A stretch of DNA of 8,217 nt from assembly GCA_027489105.1 (NCBI GenBank), contig JAIYAJ010000426.1:1-8217 (forward strand). The letters run 5' to 3'. Each line of letters begins with the position of its first letter. Position 1 is the first letter of the stretch. The notes under the pieces were generated by a model, which saw nothing but the letters and a program-made list of their open reading frames with translations, did not search any database and had not been told where the DNA came from. The stretch is from Zymomonas sp. (GTDB lineage Bacteria > Pseudomonadota > Alphaproteobacteria > Sphingomonadales > Sphingomonadaceae). Shown here in pieces: positions 5,281 through 7,664 of this stretch. Made by a program: the position numbers and the translations under genes.

Positions 5281-5436
5281 TTGCCTGCCTCACCGTGACG
5301 CGCCCGGCCTTGCCTACCCGCGCCTGGACAAACCACGCCTGCCGTGCCCCGCCTTGCCTGAGCACGCCGAGCCCAGCCTAACCAAGCCTGCCATGCCGCG
5401 CCGTGCGTCGCCTTGCCTCGACTAACCTTGCCTGCC
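5281..5436 (-). repeat. Degenerate GGCNN pentanucleotide array with 44/49/54-base blocks
   Basis: On the leftward strand the sequence is a run of 5-base units in which the first three bases are mostly GGC (sometimes GGT, GTC or CGC) and the last two vary freely. The 5-base rhythm is broken by single 4-base units GGCA at 5433-5436, 5389-5392, 5340-5343 and 5286-5289. These cut the array into blocks of 8, 9 and 10 pentamers (44, 49 and 54 bases with the tetramer). Each block opens GGCA GGCNN GGTTW GKCNN, and each contains GGCAA followed by GGCNN. The units never match each other exactly, so this is not a fresh slippage repeat. Looser pentamers continue to about 5560. It lies just before the CxxC gene and its ribosome site. 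It has no clear coding sense. Its function is unknown. Confidence 0.75.
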
Positions 5437-5605: not shown

Positions 5606-6118
5606 TCATCCTGCCGATTTTATTGCTTTCGGCAAGGCCTTGATCGTCTCATCGACAACGGCAAACAGTTCGCTGAACTCCTTCAGGTCCGCATATCGCT
5701 GCCGCCACGCGGACAACTCCTTGAAGGCGCGCTGCAACACGAGCTTGCGCGTCTTCGACATCGACATCGCATGATCTGCCGATCGGTAATGCGAGGTCTC
5801 GCCCTCGGGGATGTGGACGAAGGCTCGTGTTCGAACAGCCGGCCTGTCGTCCGACGTGTAGATCGCCACCACCGAGCGGATGAGCCCGCGTGCCTGATTG
5901 AGGCGATGCTGGTGAGCCGCCGCGCTGTCATCCCATTCAAAAAAGCTGTGCAAAGGGCTGTTGTGGCTCTTAGCATCGGCCAGAACATCCTCTGGCGTGA
6001 GCTCACCCTTTTGCTGCTGACGCAGCATCTCGATGTGCTGCCCGACGATGGTGGCGTTCTGGACGGCTCCCTGTTGGAAACGGGCGCCCTCCGCGAATTC
6101 GAAGCCTGCGACCTTCAT
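5606..6118 (-). CDS. Conserved phage protein of unknown function (170 aa)
   Basis: 170 aa. The centre, KGELTPEDVLADAKSHNSPL then HSFFEWDDSAAAHQHRLNQA (residues about 37-76), is a pattern I know from many phage genomes as a hypothetical protein: 'G.LTPE.VV..A....SPLH..FEWDDS.AA...R..QAR.LI'. The middle (about 80-125) is beta-rich with RAFVHIPEG, and the last 50 residues are helical (KELSAWRQRYADLKEFSELF). No catalytic motif is visible. The ATG overlaps the stop of the 218-aa gene (ATGA), so the two are coupled and probably act together. This family tends to occur with early genes rather than with tail genes, but that is from memory of other phages. A role in replication or recombination is possible but not shown. 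Confidence 0.75.
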   Translation of the reverse strand: MKVAGFEFAEGARFQQGAVQNATIVGQHIEMLRQQQKGELTPEDVLADAKSHNSPLHSFFEWDDSAAAHQHRLNQARGLIRSVVAIYTSDDRPAVRTRAFVHIPEGETSHYRSADHAMSMSKTRKLVLQRAFKELSAWRQRYADLKEFSELFAVVDETIKALPKAIKSAG

Positions 6119-6771
6119 GACAGCCTCCGAATGTCAGCTTCGGTGGCAACATGGAACATGCCGTTCGATCCGTCCTTCTCAGGGCGCCATTCGCCAACGC
6201 CGACCGCAAAACCAGCGGTGTTGAGCAGGTTTAAAATCTGGCCTTCGGACAGGACGTTCCGATTGAAGCGCACGAGGATCTTGGCATGCCAGTCGACGAA
6301 CTCGCCGCGGTAACGGAGATCCGCCGTCCCCATGCCGACGCGCACCATGTCTTCGCGCATACTCGGCGGCCCGCCCTCGATGCGGACCAGATTGACCCGC
6401 GACTTGCACCCGTCGAATGCGCCTTCCACGTCGGCATCTTCGCCGAGGACATGGAAGGCTTGCCGCGCCGCGACCTTCGTGATGCCAGCGACCGAAGTGC
6501 CGGCCGTGACCGCGGCCCCTTTGAACGCCACCGACGGGAAGCCGTAGCCGCCGTCCGGTAGCCGGTAGAGCGAAGCGTCGAAGTCGGCGCGCGGGTCTTT
6601 CGCCTCCTTGGCGCCCTTGGCCTTCTTCATCTGCTTGTCGAGCATTTCGCGCTTGGCCTTCGCCGACCACGCGTGAACGATCAGGGGCGTGTCGCCGACG
6701 ATCGTGACTTCCATCAGCCCGATCTTCAGTGCCGGCAATTCGATGCCGACGTCTTCCTTCTTTGCAGCCAT
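6115..6771 (-). CDS. Conserved phage protein with RAMP/Cas7-like motifs (218 aa)
   Basis: 218 aa, unknown function. The motif order recalls the RAMP fold of Cas5/Cas6/Cas7/Cmr proteins. A first strand ends VTIVGDTPLIVHAWS (about 22-36). GYGFPSVAFKGAAVTAG (about 75-91) resembles the RAMP 'iPGsslKGalr' segment. A late Gly-rich loop, GVGEWRPEKDGSNGMFHV (about 191-208), resembles 'G.G..rs.G.G.f'. In between are the basic segment KAKREMLDKQMKKAKGAKEA (about 38-57) and MREDMVRVGMGTADLRYRG (about 138-156). I recognise the sequence as a recurrent phage hypothetical; the RAMP link is my inference from motifs. A GGAGG Shine-Dalgarno at 6782-6778, 6 bases before the ATG, fixes the start and is embedded in a structured leader. 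RNA or single-stranded DNA binding is a reasonable guess, given the fold idea and basic segment. Confidence 0.78.
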   Translation of the reverse strand: MAAKKEDVGIELPALKIGLMEVTIVGDTPLIVHAWSAKAKREMLDKQMKKAKGAKEAKDPRADFDASLYRLPDGGYGFPSVAFKGAAVTAGTSVAGITKVAARQAFHVLGEDADVEGAFDGCKSRVNLVRIEGGPPSMREDMVRVGMGTADLRYRGEFVDWHAKILVRFNRNVLSEGQILNLLNTAGFAVGVGEWRPEKDGSNGMFHVATEADIRRLS

Positions 6772-6774
6772 GAT

Positions 6775-6888
6775 ATGCCTCCATCAGCGCCCGGCCTGGC
6801 AGGCCCGAGACGCAAGGGTTCGCTTTCGCGAAACCGAGCGCTGATGAAGCTCTCGAATTCCGCGTCTCAACCGCCCTGCCAGGAGCGG
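6775..6888 (-). promoter_or_regulatory. Structured RNA leader (pseudoknot) upstream of the RAMP-like gene
   Basis: Between the acidic gene (ends 6920) and the ATG at 6771 the leftward transcript can form several perfect helices. Stem 1 is CCTGGCAGG (6883-6875) with CCTGCCAGG (6803-6795), continued inwards by GAGACGC (6868-6862) with GCGTCTC (6813-6807). Stem 2 is CATCAGCGC (6846-6838) with GCGCTGATG (6790-6782). A hairpin at 6835-6816 has stem TTCGC/GCGAA and a GAAA tetraloop. Stems 1 and 2 cross, so together they make an H-type pseudoknot. Stem 2 ends on the first G of the GGAGG ribosome site. Local alternatives compete with stem 1: hairpin 6888-6871 and GGCCT-GCC-AGGCC at 6805-6793. Two exclusive folds with the ribosome site beside one of them is riboswitch-like. 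I cannot match it to a known RNA family. Confidence 0.7.
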
Positions 6889-6919
6889 ATTCAGATGTTC
6901 AGAAGCCTTCGCGGCGGGC

Positions 6920-7427: not shown

Positions 7428-7446
7428 CTCTAACCCATGGCGTCAA
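7420..7446 (-). promoter_or_regulatory. Leftward promoter for the 5606-7345 genes
   Basis: On the leftward strand TTGACG (7446-7441) and TATACA (7425-7420) are separated by 15 bases, slightly short. The -35 lies inside the first codons of the RHH gene, and the -10 overlaps the rightward -10 by four bases. Polymerase should not occupy both promoters at once. TAACC boxes at 7424-7428 and 7431-7435 and an inverted copy, GGTTA, at 7451-7455 lie over both and are candidate operators. Confidence 0.45.
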
Positions 7447-7664
7447 TAGCGGTTAAACCTAAAAAGCGTGGCCGGCCTGCTACCGGCAAAGACCCTCTCG
7501 TAGGGGTTCGTTTCCCCCCCGCGCTCACCGCGGCGGTTGATAAATTCGCTGCCGAGCAGGTTCCGCCGGCGTCCAGGTCAGAGGCCGTTCGGACCTTAGT
7601 GGCCGAACAGCTCACAGTGCTCGGGCTGATCCCCCACCGCGAAGACCCGGAGGGCGCAAACTGA
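7437..7664 (+). CDS. Ribbon-helix-helix (CopG/Arc-type) regulator
   Basis: 75 aa. An N-terminal basic, AT-hook-like segment KKRGRPATG (about 9-17) is followed by a beta strand, DPLVGVRFPPAL (about 19-30), that would lie in the DNA major groove as a dimer. Helix 1 is TAAVDKFAAEQ and the second helix is SRSEAVRTLVAEQL (about 47-60). The pattern 'v.vR.p..l...id.fa......SRSEAvR.Lv...L' is that of the ribbon-helix-helix family. The gene starts at the divergent promoter, without a Shine-Dalgarno and possibly at the first transcribed base. This resembles small phage repressors such as Arc. It probably represses its own promoter and the leftward one, using the TAACC repeats; that is inference from layout. 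Confidence 0.8.
   Translation: MASIAVKPKKRGRPATGKDPLVGVRFPPALTAAVDKFAAEQVPPASRSEAVRTLVAEQLTVLGLIPHREDPEGAN

What the first reader, a model, noticed from the sequence alone, without database searches (positions are those of the whole stretch)
6775..6888. Riboswitch-like pseudoknot leader ending on the ribosome site of the RAMP-like gene
Three perfect long-range helices (9, 7 and 9 bp) and a GAAA-capped hairpin occur in about 110 bases. Stem 2 (6846-6838 with 6790-6782) crosses stem 1 (6883-6875 with 6803-6795, and 6868-6862 with 6813-6807), giving an H-type pseudoknot whose last base pair uses the first G of GGAGG. Local hairpins at 6888-6871 and 6805-6793 use the same bases as stem 1, so the leader has two exclusive folds. 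This layout is that of translational riboswitches or of protein-bound autoregulatory leaders. Chance pairing of this amount in 148 bases, placed exactly at a ribosome site, seems unlikely. I know of no named RNA family with these sequences.
Basis: partly seen in the sequence, partly recalled or inferred. Interest (0 to 1): 0.85.

Follow-up and report, generated by a model that had tools for sequence, protein, structure and literature searches.

The report
Phage gene-start RNA switch
A folded stretch of messenger RNA that hides the ribosome's landing site sits in front of a phage RNA-guided gene, and related phages carry the same folding device in front of many unrelated genes, so it looks like a new and movable on/off switch for protein making.

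Summary
The leader (minus strand, 6890-6772) belongs to an RNA family with no Rfam match. In 59 aligned leaders the double-pseudoknot fold pairs in 91.8% of cells, and 25 of 37 pairs show changes on both sides; 8 of 46 pairs stay significant against a tree-based null. The Shine-Dalgarno GGAG lies inside the 3' pseudoknot helix. A mutually exclusive helix (P2x) can form in 58 of 59 leaders. It is the predicted fold of the nascent RNA, largely replaced as the 3' parts appear. So this is a conserved, probably two-state, SD-hiding leader.

The gene is a Vipr homologue, the RAMP of VIPR RNA-guided systems (PMC13142463). But the leader is not a Vipr autoregulation site: 85 leaders precede 19 protein clusters (antirepressors, ParB-like, HTH and others), 17 of 17 non-Vipr records tested have no vipr match, and close vipr relatives may lack the leader. 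It is a movable translational switch of phages and prophages; the named hosts are Hyphomicrobiales. What flips it is unknown: folding kinetics, a host factor or a metabolite.

The parts
6772..6890 (-). whole structured leader RNA (member of the family; model R1 match 6890-6769 includes the start codon)
   Evidence: 109.8 bits, E 4e-27 (the window is one of the 28 sequences the model was built from)
6871..6888 (-). P1 hairpin (6888-6884 with 6875-6871)
   Evidence: sequence; (4 of 4 pairs with both-side changes; 78.4% of cells paired)
6875..6883 (-). PK1 5' strand in the P1 loop (CCUGGCAGG)
6795..6803 (-). PK1 3' strand (CCUGCCAGG)
   Evidence: 3 pairs significant
6862..6868 (-). P2 5' strand (GAGACGC)
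6807..6813 (-). P2 3' strand (GCGUCUC)
   Evidence: 2 pairs significant
6838..6849 (-). PK2 5' strand, anti-Shine-Dalgarno (CUUCAUCAGCGC), may extend to 6834
6779..6790 (-). PK2 3' strand with the SD (GCGCUGAUGGAG), may extend to 6794
   Evidence: 3 pairs significant
6817..6835 (-). P3 hairpin capped by GAAA (state A)
   Evidence: P3 of 5 or more bp in 59 of 59; no single pair significant
6856..6864 (-). P2x 5' strand (CGCGGAAUU), alternative partner of the P3 5' arm (state B)
6827..6835 (-). P2x 3' strand (GGUUUCGCG), shared with the P3 5' arm
6804..6818 (-). P4, short helix CCC 6818-6816 with GGG 6806-6804 (tentative)
   Evidence: 83.1% of cells paired, covariation score 0.173 against at most 0.064 when slid; another register failed
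6778..6782 (-). Shine-Dalgarno GGAGG
   Evidence: sequence
6115..6771 (-). vipr homologue (218 aa, RAMP; phrog_4652), the regulated gene
   Evidence: (profile hit to PDB 36pp SUSP1 Vipr, E 3e-11)
5606..6118 (-). 170-aa gene next to vipr (phrog_15946), candidate vipr-accessory gene
   Evidence: role inferred from the VIPR locus layout only
5282..5432 (-). GGY/NN pentamer tract, candidate vrRNA guide array
   Evidence: 26 GGY sites, 15 followed by another exactly 5 bases on; 0 of 2000 dinucleotide shuffles as high; at most 3 in 634 other stretches of the window

Best explanation
The leader is a cis-acting translational switch RNA. Shown by comparison of sequences: two mutually exclusive sets of helices, both kept. 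State A has P1 pairing through its loop with a 3' strand (PK1), P2, the P3 hairpin, and the PK2 helix that buries the SD GGAG. State B has P2x, in which a 5' copy of the P3 partner strand captures the P3 5' arm and closes the anti-SD strand into a loop. Inferred: state A is OFF and state B is ON or a waiting state. P2x forms first on the nascent RNA and keeps the anti-SD strand away; once P2 and P3 form, PK2 closes over the SD. Either the refolding itself is the timer, giving a short burst of translation per transcript, or a host-derived factor holds one state. Phages swap the module between genes whose product must stay scarce or be made only at a given moment: vipr, antirepressors, ParB-like and HTH regulators.
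For: 59 leaders: 91.8% of cells paired, 25 of 37 pairs with both-side changes, covariation score 0.319 against at most 0.123 when slid. Tree-based null: 8 of 46 tested pairs at E<0.05, in PK1, P2 and PK2. RNAalifold, left free on 28 leaders, drew P1 and PK2, which hold 12 of its 13 compensated pairs, plus some inner pairs of its own. Of 10 later leaders not in the alignment, 10 form a PK2 helix and 9 form PK1 and P2 helices (no null run; L379, which has lost the PK2 3' strand, was not among the 10). P2x: 88.8% of cells paired, score 0.418 against at most 0.112 slid; 6 or more bp in 58 of 59; mean duplex -14.0 against -7.9 (shuffled) and -10.4 kcal/mol (partners swapped between sequences); median P2x -11.5, P3 -9.9. 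Predicted nascent fold: P2x in 58 of 59 up to the P3 5' arm; P2 in 46 and P3 in 47 of 59 once P2 is complete; PK2 in 45 of 59 at full length; SD unpaired probability below 0.2 in 44 of 59. In the 59 aligned leaders the start codon of an open frame lies at the 3' end or, in L035 and L106, within 8 bases beyond. 19 protein clusters behind 85 leaders.
Against: No experiment. Which state is ON is inferred. P2x pairs are individually weak in the tree test (four of seven at p 0.004-0.009, none at E<0.05 over 46 pairs), P3 pairs weaker still, and for both the tree shows about as many pair-breaking as pair-keeping changes (P2x 25 against 30, P3 21 against 18); MAFFT misalignment may add to this. For P2x, two of five measures do not exceed the shuffles (94 and 56 of 500). 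At full length 15 of 59 leaders do not have the SD below 0.2 unpaired in the nested model, and 2 are above 0.8; P2x remains in 8 of 59, and P2 and PK1 are drawn in only 9 each (the model cannot draw pseudoknots). In L106 the SD lies just outside PK2, L035 has a second SD-like GGAG beyond PK2, and L379 has lost the PK2 3' strand. The search model R1 contained P1, P2 and P3, so counts for these lean towards the structure; PK1, PK2, P2x and P4 were not in it.
Confidence: 0.72

Rival explanations
1. Metabolite riboswitch of a new class: a host small molecule binds the pseudoknot core and sets SD access.
For: Portable between unrelated genes, one copy per record in 14 of 14 records with a hit (of 16 searched), conserved alternative folds at the ribosome site. 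Phage-borne riboswitches exist (PMC9004378, passages: glutamine riboswitch in phage Melnitz).
Against: Hardly any conserved unpaired bases: of columns outside the six helices only 97, 115, 116, 117 and 126 reach 90%, and 97, 115, 116 fall in P4. The genes share no metabolic theme that I could see.
Confidence: 0.25
2. Binding site of a host RNA-binding protein (for instance a ribosomal protein or an RNA chaperone) that phages exploit as a signal of host state.
For: Limited host range so far: in a draw of 299 genomes across the phylum only the 2 seed genomes had hits, against 11 of 397 in the seed's order, 8 of them at 50 bits or more, seeds included. Many helices, few conserved unpaired bases.
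Against: No host leader that resembles it was found; no copy was recognised at a host gene, though the contexts of several copies are undetermined.
Confidence: 0.25
3. Autogenous operator of the RAMP (Vipr) protein, like the T4 gene 32 pseudoknot.
For: 53 of 85 leaders precede Vipr-type genes, close or distant, and Vipr is an RNA-binding RAMP (PMC13142463).
Against: 32 of 85 leaders precede other genes; 17 of 17 such records tested have no vipr match (11 of them are virus records that may be fragments, and a distant Vipr could be missed); 53 of 98 distinct vipr homologues lack the leader, with 16 changes on a quick tree, 5 forced by starred branches. The loci were largely collected by Vipr homology, which inflates the Vipr share.
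Confidence: 0.04
4. Read-through silencer of the T4 gene e / soc / I-TevI type: long upstream transcripts hide the SD, while a later transcript that starts inside the leader lacks the 5' strand and is translated.
For: T4 precedent with sequestered ribosome sites (PMC3014915, passages). PK2 needs a 5' strand some 50-65 bases upstream of its partner.
Against: Does not need PK1, P1 or the alternative helix P2x, all of which are kept. I ran no promoter search.
Confidence: 0.12
5. The leader is the 3' tail of a vrRNA, the VIPR guide RNA.
For: vrRNA tails of the SUSP1 clade are said to hold a pseudoknot (PMC13142463).
Against: No GGY/NN tract in the 29 bases between the upstream gene and the leader of the window. 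The RNA occurs in records without a vipr match and ends on start codons.
Confidence: 0.02

Closest known systems
Translational riboswitches with an SD-hiding pseudoknot (SAM-II, preQ1-II type; recalled, not from a call)
   Same: compact pseudoknot at the start codon, SD inside the 3' helix
   Different: two crossing long-range helices plus a loop-to-3'-strand pairing, few conserved unpaired bases, unrelated phage genes, no Rfam match
T4 gene 32 autogenous pseudoknot (PMC3014915, passages)
   Same: phage leader pseudoknot that controls translation start
   Different: there the pseudoknot lies 67 nt upstream and nucleates binding of the gene's own product; here the pseudoknot contains the SD and the RNA is shared by many genes
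T4 gene e, soc and I-TevI sequestered ribosome sites (PMC3014915, passages)
   Same: phage mRNA hides its own SD
   Different: described there as an RNA helix over the SD or AUG; here a conserved, portable double pseudoknot with an alternative fold
VIPR system (PMC13142463; abstract, main text parts 1-2 of 4, figure legends, word search)
   Same: window gene is a Vipr homologue with a GGY/NN tract downstream
   Different: that paper's main text mentions one pseudoknot, in the vrRNA tail, and has no occurrence of 'leader', 'UTR' or 'riboswitch'; its supplement was not read
Ribosomal protein leaders with pseudoknots (S15 rpsO from PMC3014915 passages; S4 alpha operon recalled)
   Same: pseudoknotted, translationally acting leaders
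   Different: each bound to one host gene and its own protein

Membership tests
any Rfam 15 family | covariance model match | tested here: not met
   window and 9 relatives, E up to 1: only matches below the gathering score, none on the leader
SD-hiding structured leader | SD paired in a conserved helix with compensatory changes | tested here: met
   PK2: pairs 58-140, 65-139 and 66-137 significant; the GGAG columns 141-144 are paired in 58-59 of 59 but hardly vary, so the compensatory changes lie in the rest of the helix
two-state RNA switch | two mutually exclusive helices, both conserved | tested here: met
   P2x and P3 share one arm; both can form in 58 and 59 of 59, P2x covaries above slid controls; single-pair support is weak and real switching is untested
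metabolite riboswitch | conserved aptamer that binds a small ligand | not testable with these tools
   few conserved unpaired bases speak mildly against it
autogenous operator of Vipr | found with vipr and only with it | tested here: not met
VIPR locus (context) | Vipr RAMP protein | tested here: met
   profile E 3e-11 to PDB 36pp; Csm3/Cas7-like fold, Foldseek best E 9e-6, TM about 0.5
VIPR locus (context) | vrRNA of YNNGG repeats | tested here: met
   sequence only: minus 5432-5282, 15 of 26 GGY sites followed by GGY 5 bases on, 0 of 2000 shuffles. By a stricter run count the window nets 5 units (9 of 13); 32 of 98 vipr loci net 6 or more, 0 of 98 shuffles. Expression unknown
VIPR locus (context) | vap accessory gene | tested here: inconclusive
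   170-aa neighbour, phrog_15946; not compared with vap1-6

The most novel reading that the evidence does not exclude
A phage-borne regulatory RNA class that works as a plug-in, self-timed gate: the two conserved folds are successive stages of co-transcriptional refolding, so any gene put behind the module gets a limited pulse of translation per transcript with no dedicated protein or ligand. Phages trade the module between conflict and regulator genes (RNA-guided Vipr, antirepressors, ParB-like proteins).
Probability: 0.3. Interest if true: 0.85.

Novelty: new variant of a known kind. Interest (0 to 1): 0.72.

Why it matters
Structured leaders are usually tied to one gene or pathway. This one moves between unrelated phage genes while its double pseudoknot and its competing fold are kept, so it reports a common control need of these phages. 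It also gives part of VIPR, a newly reported RNA-guided system, a translational gate. Because the module is short and its helices are known base by base, its mechanism and trigger can be tested at once with a reporter.

Tried and rejected
Rejected: vrRNA tail and Vipr operator (see rivals). Matches at 26-31 bits (L107-L109, L147, L148, L153, L154, L382-L384, L393) and L152 at 36 bits were left out as probable noise. The four at 37-50 bits from one family draw (L380, L381, L385, L386) were kept because L380, L381 and L385 form PK1, P2 and PK2 (L386 is a near copy of L385). L392 (49.9 bits) was kept for its PK2 and Bro-N-like gene although PK1 and P2 do not fit. An all-pairs covariation test gave only 3 pairs at E<0.05, 2 of them in the drawn structure and the third (15-118) one column off a PK1 pair: the null is harsh and MAFFT shifts some helices by a column. 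P4 in a first register gave no support; the register found by sliding did on three of five measures. P2 and P4 probably cannot both be complete, since 0-2 bases join them; not resolved. One blastn query, the L015 leader, found nothing in named phages. Paper searches listed no description of this RNA; the library is open-licence PMC only, I read no supplement, and the listed papers on structured RNAs were seen as listings only. No whole genome is held for the window.

Records reached through several collections repeat (L005/L081, L037/L087, L038/L088, L039/L089; L285, L314, L317, L335 and L337 are contigs of L003, L034, L035, L004 and L018); the 85 leaders include near copies (L081, L087-L089; L117, L123, L124, L130, L145; L118/L128; L319/L349; L126/L378) and the damaged L379. 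A check of the neighbours of ten copies gave a portal gene (L100), a phage regulator (L101), a weak terminase match (L381) and unknown families (L385), and nothing for the other six proteins (L104, L106, L380, L381 second gene, L390, L394), so a phage setting is not shown for every copy.

Full report
Observation. Stem 2 runs three pairs further (6849-6847 with 6781-6779), so all of GGAG is paired.

What the gene is. The 218-aa protein matches phrog_4652. By sequence it matches one solved structure clearly, PDB 36pp 'SUSP1 Vipr protein' (single sequence E 3.7e-5; 23-sequence profile E 3e-11). Its AlphaFold model (mean pLDDT 90) matches Csm3/Cas7-type RAMPs (best Foldseek E 9e-6, TM about 0.5). 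VIPR is described in PMC13142463 (I saw the abstract, main text parts 1-2 of 4, the figure legends and a word search): a phage RAMP plus guide RNAs of YNNGG repeats. The window has such a tract on the sense strand at 5432-5282: 26 GGY sites, 15 of them followed by another exactly 5 bases on, against at most 7 in 2000 shuffles and at most 3 in 634 other stretches of the window.

The leader is an RNA family. A model was made from 28 leaders picked by protein homology and eye. Of the 98 loci found by protein homology plus the window, 40 matched at 63-133 bits and the next best scored 14.8 (93 loci and the window, the other five); the 28 are among the 40. Of 25 further loci from one pattern scan, 16 matched at 76-128 bits and 9 did not (best 15.8). 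Among 194 loci from two other patterns, 13 matched at 67-111 bits, five of them contigs already known, and the next was 20.7. Rfam has no match on the leader in the window or 9 relatives.

Fold. In a MAFFT alignment of 59 leaders the structure P1, PK1, P2, P3, PK2 pairs in 91.8% of cells, with both-side changes at 25 of 37 pairs. The covariation score is 0.319 against 0.057-0.123 when slid, and 0 of 500 shuffles reach it. With changes re-thrown on a tree of 55 of the 59 rows (near copies dropped), 8 of 46 tested pairs stay at E<0.05: three in PK1, two in P2, three in PK2. P1, P3, P2x and P4 have no pair at that level. An all-pairs version found only 3 such pairs, 2 in the structure. PK1 and PK2 were not paired in the search model, so these counts are not circular. 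Ten leaders found later keep PK2 (10 of 10), PK1 and P2 (9 of 10, L392 being the exception), with new pair combinations (a best-helix search without a null). L379, found with them, has lost the PK2 3' strand and was not among the ten.

The second fold. The strand just 3' of P2's 5' arm repeats the 3' arm of P3, so both can pair with the P3 5' arm. This alternative, P2x, pairs in 88.8% of cells (score 0.418 against at most 0.112 slid; two of the five measures do not exceed the shuffles). It reaches 6 bp or more in 58 of 59 leaders, while P3 reaches 5 bp or more in 59 of 59. Median energies are -11.5 and -9.9 kcal/mol. The P2x strands fit each other better than shuffled strands or strands swapped between sequences. 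In the tree test four of its seven pairs reach only p 0.004-0.009. Folding the RNA in steps from its 5' end gives P2x in 58 of 59 up to the P3 5' arm and 55 of 59 with P3 complete. Then P2 appears in 46, P3 in 47 and P2x in 15 of 59 once P2 is complete; P2x 29, P3 31, P2 30 and PK1 45 of 59 when the PK1 strand is out; and PK2 45, P3 48, P2x 8, P2 9 and PK1 9 of 59 at full length. The model is nested, so helices that cross cannot be drawn together. A short helix P4 (CCC after P3 with GGG after P2) is likely but its place in the two states is open.

The leader moves. 85 leaders with a readable gene fall into 19 blastp clusters. One is Vipr in the wide sense (53). The others include antirepressors with ANT, Bro-N or Rha domains, a P22_AR_N protein, an anti-repressor-like protein (phrog_63), ParB-like proteins, a weak HTH_17 match, an AAA-like ATPase, a weak Peptidase_S24 match and unknowns. 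Remote homology may merge some clusters, and some leaders are near copies. In L387 a leader identical to the window's at 117 of 122 bases precedes a 174-aa gene that did not cluster with Vipr. Of 20 records tested, the 17 with other genes have no vipr match and the 3 with vipr do. On a quick tree of 98 distinct Vipr proteins, 45 with the leader and 53 without, the trait changes 16 times; starred branches force 5.

Where it occurs. Genomes with a match at E<=0.001, weak ones and seeds included: 11 of 397 (order of a seed genome), 4 of 385 (class), 6 of 394 (its family), 2 of 299 (phylum, both seeds), 9 of 228 and 7 of 229 (families of two other seeds). Named hosts of leader-bearing loci are Phyllobacterium, Mesorhizobium, Martelella, Methylobacterium, Ancylobacter and unnamed Hyphomicrobiales or Xanthobacteraceae; that Phyllobacterium is in Hyphomicrobiales was looked up, the others are recalled. 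In 14 of the 16 records there was one copy each; 2 had none. One genome held three copies and one held two. Neighbour genes show a phage setting for some copies and leave it open for others.

Mechanism. Shown: the SD is inside a conserved helix; an exclusive alternative helix is kept; the predicted folding order is P2x, then P2 with P3, then PK2. Inferred: PK2 closed is OFF; P2x keeps the anti-SD strand in a loop and so leaves the SD open; either kinetics or a bound factor sets the time in that state. Few unpaired bases are conserved, which leans away from a classical ligand pocket. The gene set (many regulators and conflict genes) suits a gate that keeps strong effectors off until, or for a short time when, the prophage is transcribed.

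Verdict. A new family of SD-hiding leader RNAs, probably two-state, used by VIPR genes and many others. The kind (structured translational leader) is known; the architecture and the gene-to-gene mobility were not described in what I could search.

Noticed in passing
window 5282-5432, minus strand: Tract of GGY/NN pentamers (candidate VIPR guide RNA array) between the 170-aa gene and the tail assembly chaperone gene; targets not decoded.
   Followed up: partly
L006 336-510 and L019 1823-1997: Two vipr homologues without this leader share another leader (both hold TTTTGTAAACGCAA) whose predicted fold pairs the SD region GGAACC with an upstream GGTT strand: possibly a second, analogous SD-hiding leader.
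   Followed up: partly
L387 123-986, minus strand of the locus: The gene after the leader-controlled 174-aa gene has a weak match to IS110-type Transposase_20 (E 0.007, below Pfam's cut-off).
   Followed up: no
L380, L385, L386: Three diverged leader copies in one genome (G1606), each before a short 68-69 aa frame; PK2 may reach 16 bp.
   Followed up: partly
L379 1501-1619: Leader that keeps the 5' parts but has lost the PK2 3' strand, before a gene with a weak Peptidase_S24 match: perhaps a natural loss of SD hiding.
   Followed up: no
window 7437-7664, plus strand: Divergent 75-aa gene with a match to a phage repressor family (phrog_4738, E 1.7e-5); L387 has a similar gene near its leader (by eye).
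   Followed up: no
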